A DNA stretch of 64,000 bases from Lophium mytilinum (Eukaryota; Ascomycota; Dothideomycetes; Mytilinidiales; Mytilinidiaceae). Every line of letters starts with the position of its first letter. Positions within the stretch are counted from its first letter, which is position 1. The translations under genes were made by a program, and so were the position numbers. The stretch lies in NCBI GenBank assembly GCA_010093605.1, contig MU004182.1, forward strand, positions 653,032 through 717,031, in the 5' to 3' direction. The notes under the pieces were generated by a model. It did not search any database. It was not told the origin of the DNA and worked only from the letters and a program-made list of their open reading frames with translations. Of this stretch, positions 1-62,056 are shown piece after piece.

Positions 1-545
1 CAGCAGTCACTATATAAGCAGACCAGTAGGTGCGAGACGTAGACACAAGTATACGAGAGAAAGTAACGCTATTGCAGCGAATATGAATATATCTTTGTAG
101 CGTACCGCACGTCTAGGGTTCTACGCGGTCTATTTATCGCTAAAATGACATCAGTAGCTCCCTGGCGACGAGCTCCCAAAAAATCAGTGGTCCTCATTGA
201 TGTTTCAGCTTCCCGCCCACCTTCCTTGGGGGGTACCGGAACGGGACTCTAATATGTCATATGAGAAAGAGGGAAGAGCAGACTGCGACAATCCGGATAA
301 ACTTGCGTCCCGTAGATCCCAACGAGGCTGGAAAGCCTGAAGTTGCTGATCTCGGCATTCCTTCTCTGAGTTCGCGCTGTCACAGGATGGATGCCCCGGA
401 TACGTCTCTTCGTTTGTTCATTGGGCTAGGCTCCTTCCAATCCCCTCAATCTAGATTATAATATGAAATGATCGCCCCAGGCCCAGCCCCGTCCCAACCG
501 AAATTTTGATCCGTCTCTTTTCGCACTCCAAACAGTAACTGGACC
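1..545. other. Upstream region of the first cluster gene, no gene seen
   Basis: No supportable coding region. The last 250 bases probably hold the promoter of the flavoprotein gene at 546. A perfect 8-bp palindrome of CCGGAT type lies at 291-298; CGG-containing palindromes are typical of Zn2Cys6 regulator sites, but one short match is weak evidence. Confidence 0.5.
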
Positions 546-2258
546 ATGGCGACCCAATACAGCGATGAGTATGATGTCGTCGTTGCCGGATCTGGAATTG
601 GTGGTCTTTCAGCCGCCATCACCGCCGCCGAGCGAGGTGCGCGTGTTCTCGTAGTAGAAAAGCTCGATAAGCTGGGAGGGGTCACCGCATTGTCGTCTGG
701 AGTATTATGGCCAGGACCCAATTCGCTTTCAGAGAGCTTGGGCTTTGAAGACTCAGTTGAAGAAGCCCAAGCATATATGAACACGATTACGCGCGGCTTG
801 GCCAAGGAGGACCTGAAGCTGGGATATCTCGCTAGGAGTCGTGAAGCCATTCAATACTTTACCGACAAGATTGGGGTTGAATTACAGGTCATTCGAGGCG
901 TGCCAGACTATTATCACCCGTCTGTCCAAGGTTCCAAGGTCGAGGGGCGCTTTCTGGAAAGCAAGCCTTTTTCTGGCAAGCGCTTGGGGATGTGGACTGA
1001 CAAGGTGCTCACCTCACCATATGGACCCGCCTTCAGCTATGTCACAGGCACAGAATGGGCTGCGTCGCAGACCGGTAAGGCGAACATCGTCGAGAGCCTT
1101 CAACAGCACGTCCAGGAAGATGAACGCTGTGGGGGCGCTGGATTGTCGGCCGCCCTCGTCTACGCCGCGCTCCAGCACAACGTGGAGTTTCGGACTTCGA
1201 CCGCGCTCGCGGATTTGATTGTGGAAGATGGAAGAGTTGTAGGAGTGCTTATTGAACCAGTGGCGTCCTCGTCAGGGGGGGATGGGGTTACGAATGACAC
1301 TACGAAAGGAACTGGGAATCATGAAAAAGCACTTCGGCTGCAAGTACGGCAAGGAGTAGTTATGGCAATAGGGGGTTACGATTGGCGAAAGGATCTAGTA
1401 CAGGCATTTGACGGACTGAAGGAGTGTTCCACCATGGTGCCACCTACAATCACCGGAGACCACATCGTCATGGCATCAAAGGTCGGTGCTATTCCGATCC
1501 CGGCACGACTTCCAGGCCAAAGTCCTATATTCGTCGGGTATCGCGTTCCAGGAGAGGTCATCTTTGGGTATCCGTCATCACGTTTATTACTGGCAGGCGC
1601 TCCCCACAGCATTATCGTGAATCGAAAGGGGCTCAGATTTGCGAACGACGGCTTTTATCCCCACGTTGTCGAGCAGGTTACCCGATATGGCAGCCAGATG
1701 ACACACATGCCCAATTGGCCCGCCTGGCTGGTGTTCGACCAGAGCATGCTCGACAAGTATGGTTTGGCACCGACCTATCCTGGACAGCCACTTCCCGAAG
1801 GCCTTGCCATACAGGCCGATAGCATCAAAGAGCTTGCTGAGCGCGCTGGCATTGACTCAACCGGTCTGAGCGAAACTGTGGACCGATACAACGGCTACTG
1901 TGAAACAGCCACGGACCCTGAATTTGGCCGCGGCACGTATCCCTGGTCTGCAATTATGGTGGGCGACTATCGATTGAGGAACCCCAACATGGCAGAGCTT
2001 GCTCGAGGCCCATTCTACGCGGTTCAATTGGTTCACGTGTCGCTCGGTTCGGGAACTGCAGGTCTGTCAACTGATGAGCATGGCCGGGTTCTGACGGTGC
2101 TGGGAGCACCTATTCCTGGCCTCTTTGCAGCCGGGAACTCCACAGCCTGGCAAGACTGGGGTGGAGGTTATACGAGTGGCGTGGCTGGAATGCGTGGGAT
2201 GATTTACGGGCATCGGGCGGCATTGCACATGACATCAGATGTCTCCCCTAAGCTGTAG
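546..2258 (+). CDS. FAD-dependent 3-ketosteroid-dehydrogenase-like oxidoreductase
   Basis: Single exon, 570 aa. The family (FAD_binding_2; fumarate reductase and 3-oxosteroid 1-dehydrogenase relatives) introduces or removes a double bond next to a carbonyl using FAD. An N-terminal dinucleotide fold is clear: GSGIGGLSAA at about residues 15-24, followed by VLVVEK. A second FAD segment (VVMAIGGYDW) follows near residue 275. The C-terminal FAD signature GLFAAGN lies near residue 525 and is followed by a glycine-rich GGGYTSG stretch as in ketosteroid dehydrogenases. Length fits that subfamily (about 550-570). No signal peptide is seen. It is the leftmost visible gene of the cluster and is convergent with the P450 at 2724. 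The substrate is unknown; a steroid or other cyclic ketone is a family-based guess. Confidence 0.85.
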   Translation: MATQYSDEYDVVVAGSGIGGLSAAITAAERGARVLVVEKLDKLGGVTALSSGVLWPGPNSLSESLGFEDSVEEAQAYMNTITRGLAKEDLKLGYLARSREAIQYFTDKIGVELQVIRGVPDYYHPSVQGSKVEGRFLESKPFSGKRLGMWTDKVLTSPYGPAFSYVTGTEWAASQTGKANIVESLQQHVQEDERCGGAGLSAALVYAALQHNVEFRTSTALADLIVEDGRVVGVLIEPVASSSGGDGVTNDTTKGTGNHEKALRLQVRQGVVMAIGGYDWRKDLVQAFDGLKECSTMVPPTITGDHIVMASKVGAIPIPARLPGQSPIFVGYRVPGEVIFGYPSSRLLLAGAPHSIIVNRKGLRFANDGFYPHVVEQVTRYGSQMTHMPNWPAWLVFDQSMLDKYGLAPTYPGQPLPEGLAIQADSIKELAERAGIDSTGLSETVDRYNGYCETATDPEFGRGTYPWSAIMVGDYRLRNPNMAELARGPFYAVQLVHVSLGSGTAGLSTDEHGRVLTVLGAPIPGLFAAGNSTAWQDWGGGYTSGVAGMRGMIYGHRAALHMTSDVSPKL

Positions 2259-2723
2259 TAAGTGTAAAACTTTATCAGGCTTAATAGCTAGATGTGAGAG
2301 AACATGTCAAGCAAGGGAAGACAAGAAGAGGGTGAACTGGTCGTGCTTGGTAAAGCAGGCTATAAAAACTGGGAGTGATCGTACTAGTATTGACATGTCG
2401 CTGTCTCTTACTATTAGGAAGGAACATCTCTGTCCCGGTCGCAAAACGACCCAAGGCTGTTAGGAAAGGAATTGGTTTACTTGAATGGAGGTCTGGCAGG
2501 GGTTCTACTTCATCATGAGCTTAACATGGTGGTCCCGTCATTTCCAAGTTCTTATGATCGGAATGATAATCTAGAGATTATTTCCAAGGGTTCATGCTAT
2601 TTGGGATATTTTAAGTAGGAAACACCTGTGTTCCTGACATAAGTAGGCCCGTTGTTTAAAGCTGTTGATGTATCTGATGCATTGCTCTTTAGATATGCTT
2701 AAGGCATCTTCATGCGTGACTCA
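2259..2723. other. Convergent intergenic spacer
   Basis: Lies between the 3' ends of the flavoprotein gene and the P450 gene. No coding region, RNA gene or repeat recognised; it should hold both 3' ends. Confidence 0.5.
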
Positions 2724-4519
2724 TCAGAACAAGTTATCAACGTCGATCTCTGCCTCCCGTCTGCGAATCTCCAAGTTCGTTTTGTGGTCAGCCGCAAGAT
2801 GCCAGCCGTGGACGAAGGGTTTCGGTGTTTGTCCAGCTGGAAGTTTCCAATCATACTTCAACAGAATGTGACACATAATGATTTTGATCTCATTTGACGC
2901 AAAGAACCGGCCAGGGCACGCATGGTCCCCATGCCCGAAACCAAGGTGGTTTGGACTGGTGGTCACAAACTGACCGACGTTTTCCTTGCCTGGCTGGGCT
3001 CGCATCTTCAGGAATCGGTCTGCCACAAATTTGTCGGCATCAGGGTAGATTTCGGGATCCCAGTGTTGCGTCGAAGAAGCTGCGAATACTTGACCTGGGC
3101 GAAGAATGGTTCCGTCCGACAACTTGATCTTCTTGATAACAATTCGTCGAAGGGCAGCTAACATCAAGCTTAACGTTAGCTCGATGAAGACGAAAATAGA
3201 TGGTTAATGAGAGAACACCTGGGCTAACGTACTGTCATTGATGGGGCGAAGCCTCTGGCTCTCCTTCATGGCGCTATCAAGTAGTTTCATGTTGTATAAC
3301 GACGTCTTCTTCCAACCGTCCTTTCCCAGAACAGCAATCACTTCTTCGCGAAGTGGCTGAATGTATTCTGGGAACTGAGCCAGGTCAAACATCAATTGCG
3401 TAATCATGTCGGCGGTGGTGTGGATTGCAACGAAGGATAAGGTCAGTTGCGCGTATACAGGGTCGTAGTGTCGGCCCTGAGCAACATCCTGGCACCATTC
3501 GATGGCATCCACATACTCGGGCTTCTCTCCCCTGGCTTTCAAGCTCGCACGATCCTTAAGGACCTTACCGATGAGACCTCGAGCATCGCTTACCTGTTGG
3601 GTCAGCGCCTGAACCTTTGTCAAGTATGGAGCAACGATTCGCCGAAAAATGGCTGGGTACGAATTTAGCTGGAAAACCGTCGCGGCCACGTAGGTCGTAT
3701 ATGTTGTGGTTATCTTCAACCACGCTGGATCCCTGCACAGCTTATCGCCCAGGAACAGACGAGAAGAGACACGAGCAACACCATTGAGGAGTACTTGCTG
3801 TGGATTGATGCTATGCCACTCTGAGGAACGTCAGGCAAAGAGTGTTGCTTCATGGTTCTGGCCGCCTACCTTTGTTATCTGTGAAAGATTCTTGGAGCGT
3901 TAGGGCAGTCTCATCAGAGAGTGGCTGTGTCACACCCCCTGGTAAAGGATGTCAGCTGCCAGTACTGTTGTTACACGCTTGCGTTTAATGCGTCGCATTC
4001 AACCCACCGAGTGCCTGAGTAAGTTTCAATTTGACAGCGTCTTGAACGATGCCTTCACCGTAGCCGAATTCGTAGAAAGCTTCTAAGCCCGGGTAGTGAG
4101 CGTTCACCATCTGCGATCCACCGAAATCAGTATGTGTGGCTATATGGAAGATATAACTCCTCGTAAGCGATCCGACATACCTTGGCTATTGCTCTGGCAT
4201 GGCTGACGTCCTCCAGGTTCCGTAGTTCGTCTATGTATTGAGGTCCAAAGACTAACTCGTACCCATGGTCAGTCATCATATTGAAAGGCTTGCCGCCAAA
4301 CTTCTTTAAGCCTTCCCGTAGCATCTGACGTCCCCGAATCGTGTATTCTCGCTTCTGTCGTTTTTGGGAAAATTCGAAAGGTTTTGGTCCATTGATCACT
4401 GGAAATCTGTAGATTTCATACCGCCGGTAGAACACGAACAGCAGGTAAATGGGGACAAGACCAGCAAAGATCTGTAGGTACCAGTGCTGGAGGAAATTTG
4501 GAAGGTCGTTGAGCAGCAT
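2724..4519 (-). CDS. Cytochrome P450 monooxygenase, five exons
   Basis: Modelled with exons 4519-4181, 4110-4008, 3938-3870, 3820-3233 and 3157-2724, giving 510 aa; all four splice phases agree. An N-terminal membrane anchor (LVPIYLLFVF, about residues 20-29) indicates an ER-bound enzyme. The heme-binding motif FGHGDHACPGR lies near residue 430; the AIHTTADM helix-I segment and the ESQRLRP (ExxR) motif precede it. The type resembles fungal P450s of gibberellin and terpenoid clusters (helix I with TTAD, a heme loop with GHGDHACPGR followed by FFASNEIK). It would hydroxylate or oxidise a hydrophobic substrate with a microsomal reductase. The neighbouring flavoprotein and hydrolases suggest it acts in the same pathway; the substrate cannot be told. 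Confidence 0.85.
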
Positions 4520-5557
4520 TTTACTCGTATAATCGAAGGTTGTGCTATCAGCAAAGGAGCTGTCCTGATTGTATAAGAAAAGCAGGTCTTACACAGACGA
4601 CAACAGTTGAAATTGATGTCAGAAACGACAAGTAGTCAAAACAAGCTCAATTGGCAGTTCACAGCTTTGAGTACTGGACCCCACGGGGAAGATCTGCGGG
4701 ACTCGGATAAAAGCCATCCGTTGGATCCGAGCAATCTAAATCTACAAGGTGCGGCCCGCGGAGGTTTTCCCCGCATAACTTTCGAGGCCGACCCCCGCGT
4801 TTGGTCCCGTGGCGCTTCGGTCGTCGTCAGCAGGATGAAAGTGACTGGACCATAACCCCACGCTGGTGCCTAATTTATGGACCTGCATTGACTTGTTATC
4901 AAACTGGCGGAGCGGCTGGTTGCAGCTCCGACTCCACTTTCCTACCGCCGCTAAAGACAACCTTTGAAGCTACTAATGGTCTTCGGAAAAGTTAGAAAGG
5001 CGGAAGCAATCGCTTGAGGGTCAATGCGAAACGTTGTAACACACTTTTGCCTCCGATTCTCCTGACAAGCATCGGCCCTCATCAATATAGAAAGCAGCAG
5101 TGAGCTGAACTGGAAAAAGGATCATGTTCCCGATTCCACCATTTACGCCCAATTACTTTTCGAAAGCAGTCGATGTGCTTGCTTCCTAGGATAAAGGTCA
5201 AGAGTTTGTAAGGTAGATTGAATTTAACCTGATCTTGTACTGAGGTGAATGAGGGTGTGTATGCACGTGATGAGTGAAAATGATGATGATTTATGGCTAG
5301 GTACAAAAGGAGGGAAATCAAATCCCAAGGCGGGAGTTTGTTTCATACGCCTGCAGTCTCTTCATGCGTTAACGTGATAGCTTACGCTTACTGAGAATGA
5401 GACGTCATGGCGATTTCCGATTGCGGTAGGTCACAGTTTCGCGGTTGGAAGCAGCAGTCATCTTTCAAAGGCGGATCAATGGCATTTCCAGCATGCACAA
5501 GGATGTTTCCATGACTAAATACCAGCATACGACTGGCGTAGCTAGACTGAATTGCAT
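4520..5557. other. Spacer upstream of the first P450, no gene
   Basis: About 1 kb without a supportable gene. It holds the promoter of the P450 starting at 4519 and the 3' end of the FAH-family gene. The only structure noticed is the inverted repeat at 4702-4731, listed separately. Confidence 0.5.
4702..4731. promoter_or_regulatory. 7-bp inverted repeat upstream of P450, possible regulator site
   Basis: CTCGGAT at 4702-4708 and its exact reverse complement ATCCGAG at 4725-4731 are separated by 16 bases, about 185-215 bp upstream of the P450 start. Inverted CGG-type half sites with a fixed spacer are the usual targets of dimeric Zn2Cys6 proteins, and one is encoded at 13547-16076. A shorter pair of the same core (TCCGA and TCGGA, 13-base spacer) lies at 6769-6791, upstream of the FAH-family gene. 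Binding is only inferred. Confidence 0.35.
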
Positions 5558-6552
5558 TTACAGGAAGTGTGCAATGTTTGAAATTTTGCCAATCTTCTCG
5601 AACTGAACCTCGACCAGCGAGCCGTCGGGAATGCCATGAGTCTTGCCCTTGTCAGTGAACCATTGGCCACCTCCACAAGTCCCTGTGAATACGACGGTGC
5701 CTGGTTGAACAGTAGTCCCTTGGATGATTGTTAGTCTCTTGTGTAGCTCGTTAGATGAATAGTACAGTGAGAGTCGCCTACCTGTAGCCATAGCCGCAAC
5801 CACTTCCGCAACATTGAATGTCATATTCTTAGTATTGTCCTGCTGAACGACCTTGCCATCCACGATGGTTTTCAATTCGATGGCAGGTGGAACTCCAAGA
5901 ACTTCAGCATTCACCAAAACCGGTCCGATTGGCGTGAATTCGTCGAACCCCTTGGACCATATGTAGTTCATAGCACCAAGTTTGGGCCCTGGACGAGGAG
6001 ACACATCGTTTCCTACGGAATATCCGATGATCTGCTTCCCTGCTTCCTCAACTGTGACATCTTTGAAGGGCTCGTATCCCACTAGAATGATTAGTTCGCC
6101 CTCATAGTCGAGCGAGTCTTGTTGGACCGGATGCACGTTGATTTTCGCATATGGACCAGCGAGACAGGTTGGTGGTCGCCAGAAGAGATATGGGCGGGGA
6201 GGTGGAAGGTTCTGCAAGCACATTCATCTGTCAACAACCACAAGCCTTTCAGTTTCAGAGACACGAGGGAAGAACGGACCTGATATCCAACCTCTGTGGC
6301 TTCCTTGACGTGGTCATTATAGTTCAACCCTGTTTGTACCACGATCGGAACATCTGCCGCGGGCGGTAATAGGTCCTTCTTATCCACTGTTACAGTCTCT
6401 CCGGTGAACTCGATGTTGCGTTTGACAGGATTTCCGGTGACGATCTCCGCTTTGATCTTATCATCTAAATCACCATTCTCTTTTGGGTTGACAAGTTGCG
6501 CGAAAGTTGGGGAACCTTTGTGGTTGAATCGTATGAGATGAGTCCACGACAT
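5558..6552 (-). CDS. Fumarylacetoacetate hydrolase family protein
   Basis: Exons 6552-6280, 6211-5782 and 5718-5558 give 287 aa, the usual length for small FAH-family enzymes (FAA hydrolase fold). These metal-dependent enzymes hydrolyse or decarboxylate beta-diketo acids formed by ring cleavage. Visible family features: VVQTGLNYNDH (about residues 71-81), the metal-site segment DYEGELIILVG, GNDVSPR, KGFDEFTPIGP and a C-terminal TVVFTGT. The second intron (5719-5781) is 63 nt, in frame and without a stop, so the sequence also reads straight through; the spliced form restores the family's MATGTT segment, so I prefer splicing. It lies next to the extradiol dioxygenase gene on the same strand, matching the ring-opening then C-C cleavage order of aromatic degradation. 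The exact substrate is unknown. Confidence 0.88.
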
Positions 6553-7221
6553 CTTGGATTGCTATTGAGTGAATGTTTGATTCAAAAAGTATGATTCTTG
6601 GCTGGAAATGGCTCAGGTAGACACACAGCTCGCAGACAGGACTGTTATATTGCTCCAATTACCGATATGTCTCAAGGACTCGTTTGAACACTTTATTAGT
6701 TCGTAACAGTAGCACCGGATCCTTTGCACCCGAATCTTCGTCATTATTGGGGATTTTTACTCTATCAGTCCGATTTCTCGACGTGTTCGGATATTTTGAT
6801 CATGTCAATCGCCCGACAACATTCTCCCGGCCCGGCACCCCACAGTCTTGTATTGTCGCTCTCGGGTCACGTATTAGCGGCAAAACTATGTAACATATTC
6901 CAGAGCAGAGAGAATATCGCTTACTAACTCTATAAGCAGCTCTGGGGCAAGGAGCGGGGAAAGTTAGGCATGCCTTGCTGTCTAGGCCTTGTTCGCAGGC
7001 CACACTGCCACATTAATGGGATTGGAAGCCACATTGGGGGCAGTGTATGCTTGGCATCTGCGAGGGCGGAAGCAATCATGGATGCAAATGAGCTTCATTC
7101 AAAGTGATTTGGTGTTATAAGGAGACGAGCTATACATTTTCAAAACTAAACTCCAGCGATAGATTTCCAGCTCAATCCATCATTCTTGAGGAGCCAAAGT
7201 CATCCTACCACTACTCTCGTG
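6553..7221. other. Promoter region of FAH-family gene
   Basis: Between the FAH-family start and the 3' end of the dioxygenase gene. No gene seen. CCGGAT lies at 6715-6720, and a TCCGA/TCGGA inverted pair spans 6769-6791. Confidence 0.4.
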
Positions 7222-8076
7222 TTAAGCCCAGATGTACGAGGAGCTGATGGTATTAAACATTATCCATTCTCCCAGTCTCTTGCCGGGGTCAGAGCCGCCA
7301 GCTGCAGCGGTGACCAAAAATGGGACGAAATGTTCATCTTTCCCAGGAGGTTGCACGTAATCAGCATCTGGGAAAGACCTCCACTTACTCAGCCCATCCA
7401 ACCGCTTCTTGAGATTCTTGTCCGTCGACACTTCCTCCAGTTTTTCTTCAAATTCTCGGTTGCTCCGTGGGCTCGATGCTCCGGGGACGCCCATGATAGG
7501 TTCAATGATGGATGCAAAATTGTGGTACGTGTGCCCACTTCCGAGAATTGCCCAGCCTTCGTCGCGGAAGGGCTCCAGCGCTTTTCCCAGGGCGAAAGAC
7601 TCCTTGATGACCTTTTCAGCGTCTCCCTGTGGAATGGAGACTTGAACGACGGGAAGGTCGGCTTGTGGTCGCATGAGCATCAGTGGTGTCCACACACCGT
7701 GATCCCAACCCCGTTCCTCGTCCAGCTCAGCTTCCAGGCCTTGTCGCTCCGCGCTCTCCTTGATCCGACGTGCGAGTTCTGGGTCTCCAGGAGCATCGTA
7801 GACAATTTCCCAGGCTTCTTTTGGCAGCGGGTTTCCGGGGACAGGAAAGTAATCGCAGTAAATTGGCGGCTTTGCGGCTGATGAGATGTATGTCTTGTCG
7901 GCCTCCCAGTGTGCAGTCACAACAATCACCCCTTTGCATCCATCCAGCACCCAAGCAGTCTCCTCACAGAGATCAATTAGGGGCTGCTGGGAAGGTGCCT
8001 TCAGGATTGCCAATGGACCTGCTCCATGCGAGACAAAGAAGGCGGGAGCACGTTTTGGGGTCTCTTTGATGGCCAT
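7222..8076 (-). CDS. LigB/DODA-type extradiol aromatic ring-cleavage dioxygenase
   Basis: Single exon, 284 aa, within the usual 260-300 aa of the LigB superfamily (4,5-DOPA extradiol dioxygenase-like). These non-heme iron or zinc enzymes split catechol rings next to the two hydroxyls. Seen in order: FFVSHGAGP (first metal histidine, about residue 17), VVTAHWEA (second, about residue 55), RGWDHGVWTPL (catalytic loop histidine, about residue 125) and GSGHTYHN (about residue 181). No signal peptide; probably cytosolic. It sits between a FAH-family hydrolase and an epoxide hydrolase, all on the same strand. Fungal relatives include DOPA dioxygenases of pigment pathways, but the surrounding genes here suggest a degradative or tailoring role. 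Confidence 0.88.
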   Translation of the reverse strand: MAIKETPKRAPAFFVSHGAGPLAILKAPSQQPLIDLCEETAWVLDGCKGVIVVTAHWEADKTYISSAAKPPIYCDYFPVPGNPLPKEAWEIVYDAPGDPELARRIKESAERQGLEAELDEERGWDHGVWTPLMLMRPQADLPVVQVSIPQGDAEKVIKESFALGKALEPFRDEGWAILGSGHTYHNFASIIEPIMGVPGASSPRSNREFEEKLEEVSTDKNLKKRLDGLSKWRSFPDADYVQPPGKDEHFVPFLVTAAAGGSDPGKRLGEWIMFNTISSSYIWA

Positions 8077-8798
8077 ATTGGATATGTACGATGGAAGATG
8101 ATGCTAAAGCACGAGAGAGCAACAACGATTGCTTAGAAAACTTCCACTACTTCTCGGGTTCTCCGCCGGTGATTAATAGACAGTGGGCTGGATTGCCCTA
8201 GCATATCGGTTAAATGCCTTCCGGTAAGGCTGCAGTAGTGGTGGCCTGACTTCCGGGTCACTGTGTCGGTTGCCTTGGTTTTAACCGATGATCGTTCCGA
8301 GTTCAGTGCAGTTGAGTCCTGATTGGAAGAGAGTTTCCTGCAGGTCAGGAAACTCTCCAATGCTGCCCGCCTAAGACGCGGACAACTAAGTGAGGGGGAT
8401 CGGCATGAGACCTTCCAGATTAATTTGGGCAATCCCACCCAGGAGCCAAGAGTATCATGTCGATATTACTACCGACGCCACGGCAACGGGCTTTGACATC
8501 ATTTACTGTCCCAGGGCTCTTGATCACTTACCGCGAAAGCCTTGCAAGCCATCGTGACAGAGTAACGCCGCCTCCTACATCCATGGTAGTGCCCAATTTT
8601 CCATATCGCAATTAGTTCGAGGGTGGTATAGTAGACGGTCTTCTTCTTCACCGTAGCGCACAAGCTCAAGACGGAGACAGGAGTGAGAATGCTAGATAAA
8701 TCTATTCCAATGCATTTCAACCGTTGACTCCGATCTTAGGATCCGGCTTGTCGTTTATCAGACTACCGCTAAAGCTTATCTCCAACACAGTGAAATAG
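8077..8798. other. Spacer with the dioxygenase promoter
   Basis: About 720 bp without a gene, upstream of the dioxygenase and downstream of the epoxide hydrolase. It contains TCCGA near 8729 and ATCCGG at 8741-8746. No repeat or RNA gene recognised. Confidence 0.4.
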
Positions 8799-10235
8799 TC
8801 ATGGTACCCAGACACTTACTACAAAATCTTCAATGTCTTGTAGAAAGGCGTCGGGCGTTTCTAATGCAGCAAAGTGGCCTCCTTCACTATGTATCCTACT
8901 CCATTCCAGGTTCCCAGTCGATCGAACCCACGAAATCGGGGTTGGTGCAATCTCGTAGGGGAAGAATGAGAAGCCCAGAGGCTTATGGATAAAGTACTCG
9001 GGCAACTCATGATATGGAGAGTGCAGCGCGTCGCGGTATGGGTATAGACAGCGGGCGATGGTCTTGGTAAACCAGTATACTGTGGCTGCATCGAGTATCA
9101 CTGAGAGTGGGGGCTTCTGGTGTGACCAGGTCAAGTACTTCTCCCCTATCCTGTCATCGGAGAAGTGATCAGTAGTATGCCGCAAAGGAGGCTGTTGGAT
9201 CAGACTTACCAACTCAGCAATGCAACGGGGTTTGAAGATAGCACGAATCCAATTGTAGCCGGCCTAGTGGCATGCTCCAAGGCGTAGGCGAACTCAGTCA
9301 TAGAGGACAGCTTAGTTCGTTCCAGTGCAGTCTCTTCGATGGTACTCTGTGCTTCGCCCGCGGCATCGGTACTCTGTGGTTTTTGCATGCCACAGAAGTT
9401 CACTAGTGTTTCCAAAGGGCTGACTCAGGGATGGTATATTTGTGCGAAAGGGTTCGAAACTTACAGTGAACTGCCTTGCATTCTTCAAATTTTGATCCGA
9501 GTATCCTCGCCAAGTAACTCCCAATATCACCGCCTTGGGCAACATATCCGTCTGCAAAGCCCAGACCAATCATCATAGAGTTGGTGACCCAAGCAACGTC
9601 GGCAACCGTTGTATTTGACTTGACTGAAGGCCCCGCGGAAAAACAGTAACCAACTATGCTGGGAACAATTATGTGGTAGGGCAGAGTTGATGGGGTGTAG
9701 CGCTTTCTGACAATGTCGAGACACGGCAGGAATTCCATGAAACTTCCTAACCCTAGGTCAGCGTCTCGTTCGAGCTGCATTTTCATAATCAATATCGGGC
9801 GTAATAGTACCAGGCCAACCATGTAGCATCACGATTGGGATAGCGTCTGGATTCTTTGAAAAAAGTGCAACAAAGTGAATGTTATAGTCCGTTCCCCCCT
9901 CATCGGTCACCGAAACCTGGTAATTGGGGAACGAGTTTATGCGTTTCTCGGTCTGACGCCTACACAGAATTGTTTAGAGGGTTGGCCCTTTCTTGCTGTT
10001 GCAGCTCTCAAGAAACTCACCAGTCGTATTGATCTTTCCATGAGCGGAGCGCATTGGAAAGCCATGCATGAGAAATCCCTACACTCCCATCTTCTTTCAG
10101 GTTCTCATACGTCTCGGGCGCAATATCAGCGAGATCTAGGTGCTGGTAAAGACGCGCGACCTCCGAATCAGGGATCGATACTTGGAACGGTGTTGGCTTT
10201 GACGTGGATCGTGGGGGTATCGTGGAGAATTCCAT
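8799..10235 (-). CDS. Epoxide hydrolase, alpha/beta fold with EHN domain
   Basis: Exons 10235-10021, 9959-9811, 9746-9465, 9402-9210 and 9150-8799 give 396 aa, the usual length for microsomal-type fungal epoxide hydrolases. The N-terminal EHN domain is seen (FQVSIPDSEVARL, IAPETYEN). The oxyanion-hole motif HGWPG lies near residue 119, the nucleophile elbow GGDIGS near residue 195 (Asp is the nucleophile) and the catalytic histidine in GGHFAALE near residue 377. It opens an epoxide to a diol, a natural step after a P450 epoxidation. An in-frame ATG at 10277 would add 14 residues; the internal Met is favoured because homologous proteins begin close to the EHN domain. It diverges from the P450 at 10551, with a shared 315-bp promoter. 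Confidence 0.87.
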
Positions 10236-10550
10236 GGTGTAGCATTGGATCACCAATTCAGTCACAAAGAACCTCAATTCGAATTCATTCAGTGGTCTAA
10301 TGGCATTCTTGAGAACCTTCGATTTGTGAGCCTAGGTTGCATGGCAGTCGATGTTACCGTGAACGGCTATTCCTATCTACCAACTCCGGTGGTTGGGACG
10401 AACCAGGGGTCTGCGGGAAAACCAAAGACGCGCTCCGTAACCCGAATTTCGTCAACTTCAGCGACACTACGTACTATTTGGTTTTCTCTTCTCATATCCG
10501 CGTCTTACAGAACATCGTCTACTGGTGTGGTTTCTTCCATCTACAGTGAA
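10236..10550. promoter_or_regulatory. Bidirectional promoter between epoxide hydrolase and second P450
   Basis: The two genes start 315 bp apart in opposite directions, so this interval must hold both promoters. Shared control would couple epoxide formation and opening. TCCGG and ATCCGCG elements occur, but no strong palindrome was found. Confidence 0.55.
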
Positions 10551-12242
10551 ATGGCAAACTTGCCAGCATTGTTCAGTATTTCGAATATAGCTTTTGGGGT
10601 AAAGGGTCAAATCACTCAGTGCCATATACTCAAACTAAGAAACCCAAACAGGTCCTATTATACTACTTCGTAAGGACAGTGTACCGTCTCTTCTTGCACC
10701 CACTATCCAAAGCGCCTGGACCTTGGTATCTGGCCATTTCAACCATCCCCGGCACATACTACATATGTATCAGTGGGCGCTGGAACCTGGTCAACCGCGA
10801 ACTACATGAGCGTTATGGGCCAATTGTCCGGGTTGGGCCACACAAGCTCAGTGTAAGGGGAGAGATTGGATGGCAGGCAATCTACGGCCACAAGGCGCGC
10901 GATGCCGAAGAATGGTCCAAATGGCCAGACTTCTTTCCGAATATCCCGAAGGACATCGTTACTGCACCCACCGCTGAACATCGCCGGCTAAGGAGGGAGA
11001 TCCTTCGCGCTTTCTCAGACAAGGCGATCCAAGAGCAGCAAGCCATATTCAATCACTACGCAAAGATTTTGATATTGCAATGGAAGAAGCGAGACCAGAC
11101 CGTCATTGATGTTGCCAAGTGGTTCAATTTCTTCACATTCGACACATTTGGCGATCTCGCTTTTGGGGAGCCATTTGGCTCACTTGAGGGTGGCGAGTCT
11201 CATCCATGGGTCAGTCTGATCTTTGACAGTATCAAGATCAACAAAATGTCAGGTTTCCTGGAGGAGTTTCCGTTGCTCAAGCAACTTGCGATTCTGCTTA
11301 CGCCCGCGGAGATCAAGCGGCGCGCCAGCGAGCATTTTGAACTCAGTGAACAAAAAATCAGACAGAGACTGGCACGGGGCGCAAACGACCGAAAAGACTT
11401 CGTCTCTTACATTTGGAAGTCCGATGGAACAGGATTGACCCAGCAGGAACTTGAGCGAAATGCTTCCACATTGATTGTCGCCGGCAGCGAGACCACGGCA
11501 ACGACATTGTCTGGTCTGGTGGATTACCTTTTGAAGAATCCTAAAAAATATGCTCGACTCACGCACGAGATTCGCTCGACTTTCAAAGCGGACGACGACG
11601 AAGTGACCCTGCTAGACACCGCAAATGTTCCTTACGTCCACGCATGTATCGAGGAGACTTTACGACTATTTCCAGCTGTGCCAGTTGGAGCCCCTCGGCA
11701 GGTGGGCGCAAGCGGAGGACACATTGAGAATTACTATCTACCTCCGAAAGTAAGTGCCCCCCTATGCTTTGAATATCGAACGGTGTCCGTCGGGTAGCAC
11801 AATCACAAGAGTTAACACGGCGCGCATTGCTTTGCTAGACCTTACTTGAAGTTCCCCAGTGGGCTACACACAGAGCCAGCGTCAACTTCCGCGATCCCGA
11901 TGACTTCGTTCCAGAGCGGTGGCTGCCGACCGATCATCCTTGGTACGATGCGAGATATGCCAATGACAATAAAGGTGTCGTTCAGAGCTTTTCATACGGA
12001 CCACGTGCCTGTGTGGGAAAGAAGTAGGCCCTCCACCCAGTAGACTTACATGGGCTTTGCCTTGCTAATCGATAAACAGCCTTGCCTACCACGAGATGAG
12101 ATTTATCACGTCTCTCATTTTCAAGAACTTCGATCTCGAGCCCACACCAGAAGGGGCTGGCTGGGTAGAGAGGTGTGAGCATTACTTCTTTTGGGATAAG
12201 CCACCCTTGCCAGTCAAACTGAAGGCTGTGGCGGTGAAGTGA
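10551..12242 (+). CDS. Cytochrome P450, CYP65-like (isotrichodermin hydroxylase type)
   Basis: Exons 10551-10598, 10652-11749, 11839-12023 and 12080-12242 give 497 aa. The first exon is only 16 codons; joining it yields a membrane anchor followed by the typical VYRLFLHPLSKAPGPWY segment. Further motifs: helix I AGSETTATT (about residue 287), EETLRLFP (ExxR), a PERW motif (PERWLPTDHP) and the heme loop FSYGPRACVGKN, whose last codon is split by the third intron (branch-like GCTAATC). This set is typical of fungal CYP65-type enzymes used in secondary metabolism. It diverges from the epoxide hydrolase and could form the epoxide that gene opens (inference). Confidence 0.88.
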
Positions 12243-13546
12243 TACTCAAATTTCCTTCAAAGCGCTCTGGAAAGCCGGGTATTTGATCGTATCTTTTTAT
12301 CGGTGGCTTTCTGAAACATTCTTGGTAAAGCTGAGCATCAGGTGTTTGATTGTTTCCATATCCAGTAAAGAGATGATTCTACGTACCATCCGTCGTCAGC
12401 AGTAGTGCGGATATATATAGTAGACATTTACAGACTTGAAACGCCACGCGTGAAAGGTCTTCAATAAGAAACAATGCAAACGTGAATTAATATCGAGAGA
12501 GAGGTAGGGGGAAGGGTTGGCCGAGTATTATGCCCAATACTAACAGTCTAGAACAGAAACACCAAGCGAACACATCGAGGGCTTGATTCTTTGACTGCTG
12601 TTATTGGAGATGCTCGGGTATTTGAACTGATCCAATAAGTTTGACAGCGCAAAGAGCGATTTGGAGAAAGCCCATACTCTCTATATCCACGCACCAGATT
12701 CTGGAGTGAAACTCGAATAAACGCTCACTGGAGCCAAGAGCGTACATGAGACCGGGCTTTTCAAGCGCTTTGGACTGACTGACCTCCCGTTGACCGAGGT
12801 GGAGTGCATGTACACAGCATAGTCCCGCAAAGGACGCAGCATATATCCTGCTCACTGTCTACTGGGGGGACATTACAGCGGCGTGATCAGGAAACCGGAG
12901 ATATCCTTGTGTGCGATCTTCAGAGAATTAGGTATCCGATTCAGCCCGCCGGCTGGGGGCGCCTCACAAAGATAAAGGAACAGGTCCTCGGTGAGATCAG
13001 GAGGTTCGACCTGAACGCGAAGTATGGCCAGACATAGGCTCTGAAACCCGAGATTTTCTGGGAACACTGGAAAAATTGGCATACAACGCCCGCGAAATGA
13101 AGTGTCGACGGCAGAACTAGTCTGCCGGTGGGTTTCGTGGCATGGAATTATAGAGCCACAGTATAGAGATAGTTTCCCTCTCGCTGCAAGCACTTTCGAG
13201 CAGACAGAACAAGTGGTCCGGCGTATTGACCCTAGCCCGCTATCAGGGAAAAGCCGAAACGACACCGGCGCTCTCTAGTACAGGGTTAAGCATGGGGCTC
13301 TGCGGGAGAACTCTGTGGCCGTCCACTTTGGGACGCGGTAGACGAGATCAAAAGCAAGGCCCGGCTTCTCGAGCTTTTCCTCACGATATCTGTCGGACAT
13401 ATATAGCTGTGGGCTCATATTCTGTATTGCAAACATACATAATAGTGAGGTTCTGTAAGGACCCTAACTCTCCCCTCTTCGGAAAGTCTGCTATCGCAAA
13501 CAGATATCTAGTTCTCTCACATCCACTTGCACTTATCTTAGCCGTA
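12243..13546. other. Convergent spacer, no gene
   Basis: About 1.3 kb between the 3' ends of the second P450 and the regulator gene. Short open frames occur on both strands, but none shows a family motif or a consistent splice structure. No repeat recognised. Confidence 0.45.
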
Positions 13547-16076
13547 TTAGTTGTAGCTCTGCAATGGCATGTCCATCGGAAAATCATCAGTGATTTGAAA
13601 CGCCTCGGAATTCCACATAGGCAAGCAATTTGGAAAGTCAACCTGCGAATCCAGGAACGCGGCCGGCAAGGAACTCCCGAAGCCTGGTCCCAGGCCCGGA
13701 AATGAAACAGGAAAAGTGCCACCACCGGATATACCATCCTGGTTTTGTGTCAGATTAAATGACGATAAAGTCTCAAAAGCATAGCAAAGACCAAAGAGCA
13801 TTTCAGAACGTACCGGCACACCATCATGTTGTATTCCAGACGCGATGCTTGGCGGGTCTTCTGAATCCTTCCCAGGACCTATATATGTGAGTCAGTGAAT
13901 GTCCAAATCAGCCTATACACCAGGGCGCATGTTCAATACCTGTCCATTTGTTTCCCCTCGAAGTATTCTGCGCTTTAGTGACGATTTCGCGGCTCAATCG
14001 CCCAAGCTCTAAAAACAGTCGCCGAAGTTGACCAACACTCCCAACATCGGGATCCTTCATCTTCGAAAACAGGTTCGCTAATGAATCAAGAAGTGCGACA
14101 TCGGTCAAAGCTCGAGGAGCATTTGGATCGTCTCGGATGCCAACGAACAAGGCCATCGACGCCAGAACAGGGTAGCACAGTGTGCGCCTTCAGCAGAGTC
14201 AGGACAAATTGCTCACCTGGTTTATGTGGTAAATGAATGGGGACATACATACCATACAAACGCCGGCATGTCCACCGCAATACCTCGACTCATACGAAGG
14301 ATGGATCGAAGGCACGAGAAGTATGTGGCCCGAGACGAAATGATCTGATTTTGAAAAGAGCTGTCGTTCGTTGACCGCCTCAGGGTCAGGGCCGCGAAGT
14401 GGATGTTGCTCAAGCATGTGTAATACTGGAAGTGTAGGACTTGGACGTAGTGACGAAGGTAGGGGTCCGAAGTGTTGATCTCGTACTCTGGTTGGAAGTC
14501 GATATCGATGCTGGCTTTCCATTCCTCAAGCTGTTGTTCCATATCCCCCATGGCCTTCACTATCTCGTGTTCCGGTCGCTTGCGCCCATTGGAGCTGTAC
14601 AGCTCTTGGAAGACCTTTGATGCGATGACCGAAAGCTCCGACATGACTCGAAATAAATTAAACGTGCTGTGGCCATCATCAAGAGGAATGATTCCCAAAC
14701 CGTCTGGTGGCTCTTCGGCAGGAAGCTCGATATTCAAATTACCAGGAGTCTGGATCAAAGGCAAGGTCGAAACCATGGAATTCTCATTGTCCAGCATGTA
14801 GGCAAACCAAAGAGCCCGATTGATCTGACGTGTGTCGACTACGTCACATTCAGTCGTAGCTTTGCCCTGCCTAAGCCCAAGGATTTGCAGAAGTCGTAAG
14901 GCGCATGAGACTAACATTGCACTGGCCTGAGGCTCCCCGTTGCCTCGGGTAAAGACCGCCATACACAGAAGAGCTTGCGCGCTCAGAAGATCGTTACTCC
15001 TCATCATCAACTCGGTCAGCACACTGAGTGCATTGTGCATATAGCGCCATGCTTGTGCAGTTGACTCCCGAGTCGTATCTGCCGGGTTTTGCAAGCGTAT
15101 CCCAACAGCAATGACACTATGCAAGCTGGCCCACCACCCAACCCGCTTGTCTGGCTGACCAGAAAACTCCTGTTGCGCCAGACTCATGAATGATGCATAG
15201 TCGTAAAGGGGAAAATATCTATTGTGACAGCGGAAGAAGACCTCCACCAGTCGCAACGTCTCATCTTTGGGCGGCAGTGACGCATGTACTGGCCCCCTCA
15301 ATCCGACAGACAAGAAGTCTAACCACTTGGGCGTGGTTGCGTTTGACAGAACATGTGCAGTGAAGCCGCTCTGGAAGGCCTGTTTCTCCTCGGCTTTGTC
15401 CATGATCCATTGTACCGGTGGTGCAAATTCAGGGTCGATAGTGTCTGGGACAGATGTGACGGTGTCTGGGATCGATGCGATGGTGCTTTGCGTGTCAGAG
15501 CCTGGTATATTAGGTAAAAATTGGCTCGATTGGAATTGGGGTTCAGTGTCAGAGGAAGGATGAGGGAGGTGAAGATCTTCCGGCACTCCTGAGAGGCTTC
15601 CAGCGCTGTTATTTTCACCGGAGACTCGATCCGCAGATGGCGCAACTCTGATCGTAGCATCGACCGAGTCATTGGCCCCGTCGGCAATGACAGGATCGGA
15701 ACCAGTTTGTGACAGGCCTGGCGAGGGGCTTGTCCTATAATCATCACCGTCCAAGAGGCTCTCCATGCGAAGTAATCGCTGCTCCAACCTGCTGAGATGG
15801 TTCGAAATGGCGGGTATTCTACATCACTGTTAGACAGCGGCCGATATAGTCTGCTGTCCTCACCTTCTGGGAGGGCCTCTCTTCTTCTGCGACTCGACAT
15901 AAGTACATTCGACGGTACGATCGCTGCAATTGCTACAGGCAGGTTGCTTCCCGTCGCATTTGATCTTCTTCGCCTGACAAGTACAGCACGCCTGTACCTT
16001 TGTTGATTAATTGGGCTCTTTTGAGGACAAGTCAACTTACCTTGGCCACTCGTTTCCGCTTGGTTCGTTGCTCCAT
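13547..16076 (-). CDS. Zn(II)2Cys6 transcription factor, probable cluster regulator
   Basis: Six exons (16076-16041, 15991-15864, 15818-14253, 14187-13940, 13878-13814, 13738-13547) give 744 aa with all phases matching. After a basic start (EQRTKRKRVAK) comes the binuclear zinc cluster at about residues 14-41, with spacing C-x2-C-x6-C-x6-C-x2-C-x6-C. A basic linker and a leucine-rich dimerisation segment (SRLEQRLLRMESLL, about residues 63-76) follow. The middle region (about residues 180-560) matches the fungal-specific transcription factor domain, with RYFPLYDYASF and a central ALWFAYMLDNEN. The C-terminus is Gly/Pro-rich. It should bind paired CGG-type sites in the nucleus. Its place at the cluster edge suggests pathway control, but no target is proven. 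Confidence 0.9.
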
Positions 16077-18498
16077 GATCTTTGAGGTCGGAACAAGCTG
16101 CTGAGCTTGAACAGTCTGGGGACGAGACGGACAGTCGAAAGTTGACATGAACTGCCGCATTGACATCACGTGTTATGCAGCGGGGATAGCAAGTTGCTAG
16201 GAAGATCCCTTCGAAAAACAGGAGGGCCTGTGGTTTATCGGAAGACCCTCATTCTCACATGCAGGGCTACAGTACCCCGGGCAAAGCGGGGAGCACCTTC
16301 CAAGGAACTACCCCGGGATCCGTATTCATAGCAGCTCTGTACGTCTGATGATCCAGCGCTGCAACCAAGCCACAAAATTACGGTATGAGGTAACGATTCT
16401 GAACGCCTCTAGAGGCAACAACAGCTCCCTAGCCAATGAATCTCCGCGCCTGCAGATTATCAGCCCAGAAAAGAAGGCTTACAGGGATCGACTCAGTTTC
16501 CGCGCTAGGTCATAAGACGTAAAGAGAGGCTGCGAAGGCAATATATATCGGCGACGCGATTGGATCCTTGGAGGTCGTTTGGTAGACTCAGGGTGCATTT
16601 TAGCTTCCTACCCTATGTCCCCCGCATTCTTGGACGATCCCCCGCATTCTGGGAGCATCCCCTCCATCTTTGGGGCCGGCTCGGACCGTAATTACCGTGT
16701 TTATCCGTTTTTGAGACGATAAATGTGCACAAACTGGGCATAATCCCTTACGTGTGCACGAAAAGACTGACTAACTCCAAGGATGTCCACTGATTCCCAG
16801 TTTTCGAACCTGGATAAACAGCGTTCAGTTTAACCGAGGGAATTGTGCAGGTGATGTGAGCTAGAATGATCGCCTCTCAATTGGTGACGAGACAAGATTT
16901 CCAATTCAACCAACGAACAGCACCACCCCTTCTTATTCGACCTCCGATACCTGATACCCTACCTCTGTAACACTCTTCTCCGTGCACTTTATAACGTTAC
17001 TGTGAGTCTTGAAGGCGGAAGTGAAGCGCGCTTGCGCGTGCTGTGAGAGTGTGAGATTCTTGATGTTCGGTGATATTCGGTTTCTGAGCACGTGATTTAT
17101 GTATATATTGTAGTAAAACATTTCTTCACTAGATCTAGTAAAGATTGGACTTGCATAGGCTTTGGATACATGCATTTACTAGCTACAATTCACCTGTAGT
17201 AGACATTTGTTGTTCGCAAATATCTTCAATCACGTGATCGGAAATGTCACTCCATGATCTCACCTTCTTTTTTCCACTTTCGTTGCCTTCTTCAAACTAA
17301 CTATCCCCATATTCGTTGTGAGCATTATTTGCATCACTACAGTCATGTCTAGATGCTGCCGGTAGGTAGCGTTAAGTAGCTATCGGTCTTCCGTAACAAC
17401 CATATCTACATTGATATACTGCTAAGTATCAGCAATGGCCTGCGTCAGTAGCTTCGCGTTCATTCAGCAGCACTGTTCAAACGTCATGCCATAAAGTTCA
17501 ACCGATTCATTACAGCAAATGAGCTATATCAGCGGCCGGAGAAAGATTAGATTCTATTCCTCTTACGTTCAACGGTAAGTAAAGATCAATAGAGTTACAC
17601 TGCCATTATCTATTCGAATCACGTTCAAGCCCCATACAACCCGCCCACATATTACTCAGACGTTTACCACTTGCCCTCCTTGGCCCTGTGACCATGAAGC
17701 TGTGCCAAAAAAGAGTACGCAAATTAAAGGTCCCAGCACCGCAATGTCGGCTCCAGCACTAGTGCAATTCGATCTTCTCGCCCTTCCATTTACTCCATCT
17801 GATAGTTCTGTGAGGCTGGGTAGTTCTGCTGGCTAGGTTTCTGCTTGCCCGATTCAGCAGCGCTGACGTTGCCGCGTGGATTTTGCGGAGTGACACGCAA
17901 TCCACTACCCATCGTATACGGCGCACCCGAAGTGCGATGACGATGAATATTGATGCCGAAAATCGACAGCGAGATGTTTTGATGAGTTTTGAAAACTGAA
18001 GGGGCATTGCTGGCTTTTTGGACGATCCGATCAACACACTGGAAAAAAACTCTCTGATGGCTCTAGAAACATGAGAAACTCTAACTGTGCTTTGGGTGGC
18101 AAGTTTCACACTGACCAAATGGAAGTCCTAGTCTTACTCTGTGCAGAGTAAATACATCGTTGGGATGGTCATACGGCGCGACCCCGCTGAAGGCCATTTT
18201 GTGGTCCATTGGCTCCCATTCGAGGCTTGCACCTCACGCAATGTTCAATGTTTCACGTTTCCACGGCACTTGTCCAGCAGCGAGTTGGCATGAAAACTCA
18301 TGAGAGCGTTCTCGTGGTGTAGCAGTGAATGGGTAAAAGGTGGGGTATGGGAGATCGCCGCCAGGTCAATATTGCGATGAGAGCCGGGGCACCAAGTGGC
18401 CCTTGCACCGGCTCCTTCACCCCTATTGCAACCACATTCCGTGCCCAGTCAATAGCATTGCTTTCTTTCAAACATCAGCCTTCAGACGTTACTCCAAG
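16077..18498. other. Gene-poor region after the cluster
   Basis: About 2.4 kb without a supportable gene. The first part holds the regulator promoter. A short direct repeat of CCCCCGCATTCT occurs twice between 16619 and 16652. Around 17250-17330 the plus strand is pyrimidine-rich like a promoter, but the ATG at 17345 meets a stop after six codons. A 119-codon open frame on the minus strand (17759-18118) has no recognisable feature. A decayed gene is possible. Confidence 0.4.
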
Positions 18499-61409: not shown

Positions 61410-62056
61410 GGTGGTAGAGGTTAGTGATGTGGCCCGGACGTGAGGTAGTGAGGTAGTGGAAAGGAAGTTGGAGGGCGGCGAGGCTAGCTTTTATATTGAA
61501 TTGCTGCGCCGCCCAGGCAGCGACGTCAGGGTCGCTATCCACTGGCCGAAATACCACATGGTACCCCTGCACGCATTCCTGCGGGTCATGGCCTTGAGAC
61601 ACGTGTGTATTCACTCCAAACCACACGCGAAAACGTTTTCAGAGATACGGAGAAGCGTCTAAGAGAATCAGGAGAAGAGTTGGGTTCTAGTAAGGTTTGA
61701 AGCTATTCTACTTTAGGTGTAGCGTTGGATAGATCATGACAACACCTCCGAATGTCTTCCATCACTGCAACATCCATCAATCAAAACATAACGTCAAAGC
61801 GACCATTCCTTCATCAAGCGTATGTAACCGTTCTCATGTCGGCCTGAGATGGAGAAGTTCCGATACATTTTCTGCGTCTGATTCTGCATCGTCATCATCC
61901 ATTCGTTCCGCAATATTATCGATCTCCTTTACTTCCATCGTCGCCACTATAGTCTAAGCTCGTAGATGATATGAGGAGGCGCTCTACGCATATCTAACAT
62001 ACCTTAGCTGCCATACTTAGTAGCATTAACCGCAGACTCGCATCCACTCGTCCACC
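61410..62056. other. Divergent spacer between rvt and the TEX30-like gene
   Basis: About 650 bp holding two promoters facing opposite ways. No gene, repeat or RNA recognised. Confidence 0.45.

What the first reader, a model, noticed from the sequence alone, without database searches (positions are those of the whole stretch)
546..16076. Orphan oxidative ring-cleavage gene cluster with its own regulator
Seven neighbouring genes combine a ketosteroid-dehydrogenase-like flavoprotein, two P450s, an epoxide hydrolase, a LigB-type ring-cleaving dioxygenase, an FAH-family C-C hydrolase and a Zn2Cys6 regulator, with no scaffold synthase. Families are seen directly; the shared pathway is inferred. I know of no named fungal cluster with this exact set.
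Basis: partly seen in the sequence, partly recalled or inferred. Interest (0 to 1): 0.75.

Follow-up and report, generated by a model that had tools for sequence, protein, structure and literature searches.

The report
Fungal ring-breaking catabolic gene cluster
The seven genes are the right-hand part of a roughly 40-kb fungal gene cluster that looks built to take apart a ring-shaped compound such as a terpenoid or steroid, by a route apparently not described in fungi; the compound itself is still unknown.

Summary
All seven genes are present and read as complete models: KstD-like flavoprotein, two P450s, FAH, LigB, epoxide hydrolase, 746-aa Zn2Cys6 regulator. But the window cuts the cluster. 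Left of it on the same contig lie three more KstD/fumarate-reductase-type flavoproteins, two Baeyer-Villiger monooxygenases (one close to 5mq6, PockeMO), a 6-oxocamphor-hydrolase-like beta-diketone hydrolase, a second epoxide hydrolase, a third P450 and dehydrogenases. Both halves share a promoter word, CGGATAAA: 9 of 563 genomic copies fall within 33.8 kb, though it stands before only about half of the genes. A diverged second cluster on contig C12 repeats LigB, FAH, KstD-like flavoprotein and BVMO2. None of 21 ketosynthase matches lies within about 140 kb. Best reading: one co-regulated catabolic cluster that aromatises an alicyclic ring with KstD/ChcC-type dehydrogenases, then opens the catechol (LigB) and processes the product (FAH), while BVMO and beta-diketone hydrolase open other rings. 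Substrate and step order are inferred. Defining parts of the bacterial 9,10-seco steroid pathway (Rieske hydroxylase, VOC-type extradiol dioxygenase) are absent from the scanned genes.

The parts
546..2258 (+). FAD570: KstD/ChcC1-like FAD_binding_2 dehydrogenase, 570 aa, single exon
   Evidence: Pfam FAD_binding_2 180.5 bits; NCBIfam KstD PRK12844 289.7 and ChcC1 285.2 bits, both under the equivalog cut-offs of 789 and 1000; best solved relative 7p18 3-oxosteroid 1-dehydrogenase, 181.6 bits; KstD residues Tyr, Tyr, Tyr, Gly aligned
2724..4519 (-). P450a, 510 aa, 5 exons
   Evidence: Hand-spliced; Pfam p450 133.8 bits; heme-type motif FGHGDHACPG
5558..6552 (-). FAH-family hydrolase/decarboxylase/isomerase, 287 aa, 3 exons
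   Evidence: Pfam FAA_hydrolase 159.6 bits; nearest solved are entries named 2-hydroxyhepta-2,4-diene-1,7-dioate isomerase and HpcE/HpaG-type enzymes
7222..8076 (-). LigB-type (class III, DODA/YgiD-like) extradiol dioxygenase, 284 aa, single exon
   Evidence: Pfam LigB 88.9 bits, cut-off 26.3; 4,5-DOPA dioxygenase structures 8in2, 29ky, 9j2l; SHG, AHW, GWDHG, YHNF, EHF motifs, conserved in the C12 paralogue
8799..10235 (-). EHright: epoxide hydrolase with EHN domain, 398 aa, 5 exons
   Evidence: Pfam EHN 104.2 bits; HGWPG, QGGDIG, EGGHF motifs
10551..12242 (+). P450b, 497 aa, 4 exons
   Evidence: Pfam p450 219.9 bits
13547..16076 (-). Zn2Cys6 transcription factor, 746 aa, 6 exons
   Evidence: Full model; Zn_clus 32.9 and Fungal_trans 52.6 bits on a 578-aa part
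294..301 (+). CGGATAAA site, about 250 bp before the FAD570 start
4704..4711 (+). CGGATAAA site, about 185 bp before the P450a start
8207..8287 (.). two CGGTTAA variants (8207 +, 8281 -) before LigB
16700..16836 (-). CGGATAAA (16700-16707) and CGGTTAA (16830-16836) before the regulator

Best explanation
The feature is the right half of a co-regulated catabolic gene cluster (contig C2, about 627.7-669.1 kb) for a polycyclic, non-aromatic ketone or alcohol of terpenoid or steroid type. Most likely order (inferred): P450s and SDRs place ketones on the skeleton; KstD/ChcC-type flavoproteins desaturate a cyclohexanone ring until it becomes a phenol; a P450 adds the second hydroxyl; LigB opens the catechol next to its hydroxyls; the FAH enzyme processes the meta-cleavage product. 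In parallel the PockeMO-like BVMO, the second BVMO and the 6-oxocamphor-hydrolase-like enzyme open saturated rings through lactones and beta-diketones, and epoxide hydrolases and SDRs deal with intermediates. The Zn2Cys6 factor is proposed to switch on the block, at least in part, through CGGATAAA sites, one of them in its own promoter. Shown here: gene content, intact models, catalytic motifs, shared promoter word, second diverged cluster. Inferred: substrate, order, catabolic direction, regulator-site pairing.
For: Families. BVMO1 is nearest to 5mq6, 518.8 bits; that 5mq6 is PockeMO of Thermothelomyces is recalled; PMC7570940 (passages) says PockeMO oxidises rings A and D of steroids. OCH-like protein: Alr4455 beta-diketone hydrolase 213.2 bits, 6-oxocamphor hydrolase 183.5 bits. 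FAD570 and FAD596 keep Tyr/Tyr/Tyr/Gly at the KstD1 positions of 4c3x (counted by hand, residue roles recalled). FAD570 scores 285 bits to ChcC1; a 561-aa piece of FAD596 scores 395 to ChcC2, though its best match is an unnamed oxidoreductase family at 538.6; that ChcC1 and ChcC2 aromatise 4-oxocyclohexanecarboxylate is recalled. CGGATAA is in more of the 14 spacers than any other 7-mer: 12 sites in 8 spacers against 1.15 sites in 300 dinucleotide shuffles, maximum 5. CGGATAAA: 563 copies in 43.2 Mb, 9 within 33.8 kb, Poisson 1.2e-9, about 1.3e-5 genome-wide. Second cluster on C12: LigB 55%, FAH 48-56%, flavoprotein 57-61% to FAD550, BVMO2 43-61%; C12 holds the closest paralogue of LigB, FAH and, by identity, BVMO2. 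A Rhodococcus plasmid has FAD570-like and FAD596-like genes in tandem, with a BVMO2-like gene, a P450 and SDRs within 16 kb.
Against: In the NCBIfam scan of ten block proteins no row shown reaches its cut-off (lists capped at 25; P450s, epoxide hydrolases and regulator not scanned there), so substrates cannot be read from sequence. 0 of 63 prokaryotic LigB loci, sampled by two peptide patterns, have KstD-like, FAH or BVMO relatives at E 1e-10 in their flanks. CGGATAAA itself is in 7 of 14 spacers; the FAD550, NmrA/BVMO2, FAH and EHright/P450b spacers have no CGG-N-TAA at all and SDR307 only CGGGTAA. The word was found in the same spacers it was tested on; counted by spacers, 12 of 100 shuffles reach 8 or more for some 7-mer. 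Of 4 CGGATAA copies on the C12 stretch two lie in spacers (before FAH and before an MFS-type gene) and two in genes, so C12 does not confirm the word. A 10-N run at C2:635857 separates P450c, FAD484, an SDR and FAD550 from the rest. No transporter and no CoA-ligase were modelled in the C2 block.
Confidence: 0.56

Rival explanations
1. Biosynthetic tailoring cluster: the genes decorate and cleave a home-made scaffold whose synthase lies elsewhere in the genome.
For: P450s, BVMOs, SDRs, KstD-like enzymes and epoxide hydrolases also occur in fungal triterpenoid and polyketide clusters (recalled, for example KstD-like HelE of helvolic acid). P450a has an FGHGxHACPGRFFA heme motif that I recall from terpenoid P450s.
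Against: None of 21 ketosynthase matches lies within about 140 kb; no giant ORF in the block or flanks; LigB plus FAH, and an OCH-like hydrolase, are degradative by family; the core recurs in a second cluster where no giant gene was predicted either. Small terpene cyclases were not searched by profile.
Confidence: 0.18
2. Two neighbouring units: a right-hand aromatic (phenol/catechol) meta-cleavage unit with LigB, FAH, P450s and regulator, and an unrelated left-hand ketone-degrading unit.
For: The left genes are mostly on + and the right ones mostly on -; 4 of 14 spacers, on both sides, lack the word altogether.
Against: CGGATAAA sites lie in both halves and before the regulator; the C12 cluster also joins LigB and FAH to a BVMO2 paralogue and a KstD-like gene; FAD570 and FAD550 are 53% identical sisters on the two sides.
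Confidence: 0.16
3. Chance neighbours in a duplication-prone region.
For: BVMO-type genes are many in this genome (44 and 96 matches, exon pieces counted apart).
Against: Rare families (LigB 5 loci, KstD-like few) co-occur twice; shared promoter word.
Confidence: 0.04

Closest known systems
Bacterial 9,10-seco steroid degradation (KstD, KshA, HsaABCD)
   Same: KstD-type desaturation leading to a phenolic ring, then extradiol cleavage and C-C processing (scheme in PMC4064121, passages).
   Different: No Rieske KshA or VOC-type HsaC among the scanned genes; here P450s, a LigB/DODA-type dioxygenase and an FAH enzyme. PMC4810484 (passages) found no steroid-degrading fungi with models built on the bacterial enzymes and asked for KshA and HsaC, so it would not count this set.
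Cyclohexanecarboxylate aromatisation (ChcA P450, ChcB SDR, ChcC1/ChcC2; recalled, no paper found)
   Same: P450, SDR and two KstD-family flavoproteins that resemble ChcC1 and ChcC2.
   Different: Scores are far under the equivalog cut-offs; here ring-cleavage genes and BVMOs are in the same cluster.
Grosmannia clavigera limonene utilisation (two BVMOs)
   Same: Fungal use of terpenoids with BVMOs; a 2021 review calls these the only fungal enzymes characterised in terpenoid detoxification (PMC8120277, passages).
   Different: The two primary Grosmannia papers asked for are not held, so gene content was not compared; no LigB, FAH or KstD-like genes are named for it in the passages seen.
PockeMO, polycyclic ketone monooxygenase (5mq6)
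   Same: BVMO1 matches it over 621 residues, 518.8 bits.
   Different: Single enzyme; no pathway for it appears in the passages read.

Membership tests
Bacterial 9,10-seco steroid pathway | KstD | tested here: inconclusive
   KstD family with aligned Tyr/Tyr/Tyr/Gly in FAD570 and FAD596 but 289.7 bits against a cut-off of 789
Bacterial 9,10-seco steroid pathway | Rieske 9alpha-hydroxylase KshA | tested here: not met
   No Rieske domain in the 17 block proteins scanned (the second SDR was not scanned); not searched genome-wide
Bacterial 9,10-seco steroid pathway | VOC-type extradiol dioxygenase HsaC | tested here: not met
   Among the 17 block proteins scanned the only extradiol enzyme is of the LigB family
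Class III (LigB) extradiol dioxygenases | LigB domain with conserved histidines | tested here: met
   88.9 bits, cut-off 26.3; histidine motifs (metal roles recalled)
4,5-DOPA extradiol dioxygenase | equivalog score | tested here: not met
   96 bits, cut-off 233
Cyclohexanecarboxylate aromatisation (ChcC1/ChcC2) | equivalog scores of both dehydrogenases | tested here: not met
   285.2 of 1000 and 395.4 of 900
Fungal secondary-metabolite cluster | scaffold synthase in or beside the cluster | tested here: inconclusive
   No ketosynthase match within about 140 kb, no giant ORFs; terpene cyclases, oxidosqualene cyclases and NRPSs not searched by profile
Fungal catabolic gene cluster | co-located, co-regulated enzymes that consume an external compound | tested here: inconclusive
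   Co-location and a shared promoter word shown; expression and substrate not testable here
Fungal catabolic gene cluster | conserved co-location in other fungi | not testable with these tools
   No other fungal genome is held; only the within-genome second cluster was seen

The most novel reading that the evidence does not exclude
A fungal counterpart of the bacterial 9,10-seco steroid pathway, assembled independently from P450s, KstD-like flavoproteins, a PockeMO-like BVMO and a LigB-type rather than VOC-type extradiol dioxygenase, which lets a fungus dismantle the steroid or triterpenoid nucleus itself, in two diverged clusters for two substrates.
Probability: 0.2. Interest if true: 0.85.

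Novelty: new variant of a known kind. Interest (0 to 1): 0.6.

Why it matters
Fungal catabolic clusters seem far less known than biosynthetic ones; [quoted passage not shown] A defined block with its own regulator, a candidate promoter word and a second copy in the same genome makes the question whether fungi can break a steroid or terpenoid ring system directly testable, and offers a search profile (LigB + FAH + KstD-like + BVMO) for other fungal genomes.

Tried and rejected
Prokaryotic source of the LigB unit: 63 GTDB loci found with two peptide patterns; best identity 36%; 0 of 63 with KstD-like, FAH or BVMO relatives in the held flanks at E 1e-10; 4 of 63 had an SDR hit and 1 an epoxide-hydrolase hit (some flanks are short). 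Two Novosphingobium plasmid regions around a LigB gene: SDRs, TonB receptors, a FadD3-family ligase in pNL2, but none of the rest of the set except an SDR. Of four plasmid regions opened for the OCH-like and FAD550-like genes, two (Paraburkholderia sprentiae, Rhodococcus rhodochrous) look like P450/KstD catabolic regions and two (P. megapolitana, Pantoea) do not.

Classical CGG dyads as regulator sites: of those seen in at least 6 spacers none exceeds z 2. Testing the word on C12 gave no confirmation. By number of sites alone CGGATAA is second to a poly-C word, which I take to come mainly from one poly-C run.

First automatic gene models merged or lost intron-rich genes, so splice models were made by hand. 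The NmrA-like and 262-aa models are rough; the second SDR at about C2:632.3-633.5k was seen only as ORF pieces.

Literature: of ten searches, seven were aimed at such a cluster and their listings showed no fungal cluster with this set; three were on KstD residues, ChcC and PockeMO. Three papers asked for by id were not held. Seven papers were seen as passages only (with 80, 82). Absence here is a limit of the library as much as a finding.

Structure prediction and fold search were not used.
Full report
What was checked. The window is G000:C2:653032-717031 of a 43.2-Mb genome in 24 contigs; intron structure and gene families point to a filamentous fungus, species unknown. Models have no internal stops and all their introns are GT-AG, 43-115 bases long over all models. 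Pfam places each in the stated family above its cut-off: FAD_binding_2, p450 (twice), FAA_hydrolase, LigB, EHN/abhydrolase, and Zn_clus with Fungal_trans.

The cluster is larger than the window shows. A genome search with the flavoprotein found relatives immediately left of the window. Reading C2:603-653k gave, from left to right: P450c (629727-627723, -), FAD484 (630474-631928, +; fumarate-reductase-like), an SDR in pieces (about 632.3-633.5k, -), FAD550 (634072-635724, +; 53% identical to FAD570), EHleft (636220-637555, +), BVMO1 (638330-640315, +), FAD596 (640986-642840, +), SDR307 (643542-644465, +), an OCH-like crotonase (645364-646194, +), an NmrA-like gene (about 647.8-646.5k, -) and BVMO2 (649629-651881, +). 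With the seven window genes this makes about 18. To the right the block seems to end at the regulator: the next genes are a 440-aa protein without Pfam match and an epimerase-type reductase. A 10-N run at C2:635857 means that the linkage of P450c, FAD484, the SDR and FAD550 to the rest depends on the assembly.

Shared promoter word. Among gapped 3+3 patterns, CGG-N-TAA stood out in the 14 spacers of the block (10 of 14 against 0.92 in 60 random background sets, z 10.8; next pattern 6.6). CGGATAA occurs in more spacers than any other 7-mer (8 of 14, 12 sites; 1.15 sites expected from 300 dinucleotide shuffles, maximum 5); by sites alone it is second to a poly-C word. As a correction for picking the best word, the most frequent 7-mer of any kind in 100 shuffles reached at most 11 sites; counted by spacers, 12 of 100 shuffles reached 8 or more, so the spacer count alone is not decisive. 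Five other stretches of this genome, 125 kb together, hold 3 copies of CGGATAA, and the 60-kb C12 stretch 4. Genome-wide, CGGATAAA occurs 563 times; 9 lie in C2:635938-669738, Poisson probability 1.2e-9 for that stretch, about 1.3e-5 genome-wide. These nine precede EHleft, BVMO1 (two), FAD596, the OCH-like gene (two), FAD570, P450a and the regulator, 7 of 14 spacers; the P450c/FAD484 spacer has CGGATAA, LigB two CGGTTAA variants, SDR307 only CGGGTAA; the FAD550, NmrA/BVMO2, FAH and EHright/P450b spacers have none. The word resembles the half site that I recall for quinate regulators such as Qa-1F (not tested). That the cluster's Zn2Cys6 protein binds it is inference.

A second cluster in the same genome. 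C12:1698-1738k holds a BVMO2 paralogue, FAH, LigB and a KstD-like flavoprotein, with predicted genes that look like an aldehyde dehydrogenase, an esterase, SDRs, an MFS transporter, a second flavin monooxygenase and two P450s (the latter group named by eye or by tblastn, not by Pfam). Identities to the C2 genes: LigB 55%, FAH 48-56%, flavoprotein 57-61% to FAD550 and 46-56% to FAD570, BVMO2 43-61%, P450a 40-44%, P450b 31-39%. C12 holds the closest paralogue outside C2 for LigB (334.5 bits, next 82.3), FAH and the flavoprotein, and by identity for BVMO2 (the bit-score order there is confused by introns, and a C10 gene at 36% has the highest single score). For P450a this is not so: a C14 gene scores higher. 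P450b was not searched genome-wide. Of the 5 LigB loci over the cut-off, the other three (C4, C6, C7) have no FAH or KstD-like match nearby. The within-genome repeat is the only conservation test that was possible.

How it may work. The LigB protein is nearest to 4,5-DOPA extradiol dioxygenases, with SHG, AHW, GWDHG, YHNF and EHF motifs. The FAH protein is nearest to HpcE/HpaG-type enzymes, which act on meta-cleavage products (recalled). This pair argues for extradiol cleavage of a catechol. FAD570, FAD550, the C12 flavoprotein and FAD596 belong to the 3-ketosteroid dehydrogenase family; aligned to 4c3x, FAD570 and FAD596 keep Tyr, Tyr, Tyr and Gly at chain positions 139, 338, 507 and 511 (counted by hand), which I identify with KstD1 Tyr119, Tyr318, Tyr487 and Gly491 (roles recalled; a literature search for them found nothing). 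FAD550 and the C12 protein have the same Tyr-bearing motifs. FAD570 scores almost equally with KstD (289.7) and ChcC1 (285.2); a 561-aa piece of FAD596 scores 395 with ChcC2, below its best match, an unnamed oxidoreductase family at 538.6. ChcC1 and ChcC2 make a phenol from a cyclohexanone (recalled), the chemistry needed to feed LigB from an alicyclic substrate. BVMO1 is close to 5mq6, PockeMO, which takes steroids (PMC6315744 and PMC7570940, passages). The OCH-like protein keeps the His, His, His, Asp and Glu that I recall for 6-oxocamphor hydrolase, read from its alignment to Alr4455. Together: an attack on saturated rings by Baeyer-Villiger and beta-diketone cleavage, and on one ring by aromatisation and meta-cleavage. 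FAD596 has an arginine-rich N-terminus that could be a mitochondrial signal; none of the models ends in SKL.

Parallel in bacteria. Plasmid pGD02.2.1 of Rhodococcus rhodochrous has a FAD570-like gene (35%) next to a FAD596-like gene (33%), and within 16 kb a BVMO2-like gene (30%), a P450, SDRs and a gene annotated as 3-(3-hydroxyphenyl)propionate hydroxylase. Its substrate is not annotated. Paraburkholderia sprentiae pl1WSM5005 has the OCH-like gene (45%), a KstD-like gene (30-32%), P450s and a ring-hydroxylating dioxygenase within 30 kb. These support the catabolic reading, but no LigB or FAH relative was found in either stretch.

What it is not. It does not meet the features of the bacterial 9,10-seco steroid pathway (no Rieske or VOC-type extradiol domain in the 17 proteins scanned), and in the NCBIfam scan of ten proteins no row shown reaches its cut-off. 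It may still work like that pathway. PMC4810484 (passages) searched fungal genomes with models of the bacterial enzymes and found no fungal steroid degraders; its criteria would not count this set. Biosynthesis is less likely: none of 21 ketosynthase matches within about 140 kb, no giant ORFs, degradative families; but terpene cyclases and NRPSs were not searched by profile.

Verdict. Observation confirmed, interpretation right in kind but too narrow in extent. A new variant of a known kind, the fungal catabolic gene cluster, with a route that none of the seven literature searches aimed at it listed. Interest 0.6; it would rise if a steroid or triterpenoid proved to be the substrate.

Noticed in passing
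C2:635857-635866 (left of the window): A run of 10 N next to a poly-C stretch between FAD550 and EHleft: probably an assembly join inside the cluster.
   Followed up: partly
C2:619911-621873 (L019): A further BVMO-like gene about 6 kb left of P450c, beyond two genes of unknown family; its link to the cluster is open.
   Followed up: no
C2:625072-626130 (L007): Gene of unknown family (rough 262-aa model, no Pfam match) with a CGGATAAC site about 150 bp before its start; may mark the true left edge of the regulon.
   Followed up: partly
window 62030-63514: Open frame of 494 codons with five near-identical 28-residue proline-rich repeats in its first half.
   Followed up: no
window 12243-13546: 1.3-kb spacer between P450b and the regulator with no convincing coding sequence.
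   Followed up: partly
L090 (Rhodococcus rhodochrous pGD02.2.1): Catabolic-looking region with tandem KstD-family genes, P450, BVMO-like and MhpA-like genes between transposases, substrate not annotated.
   Followed up: partly
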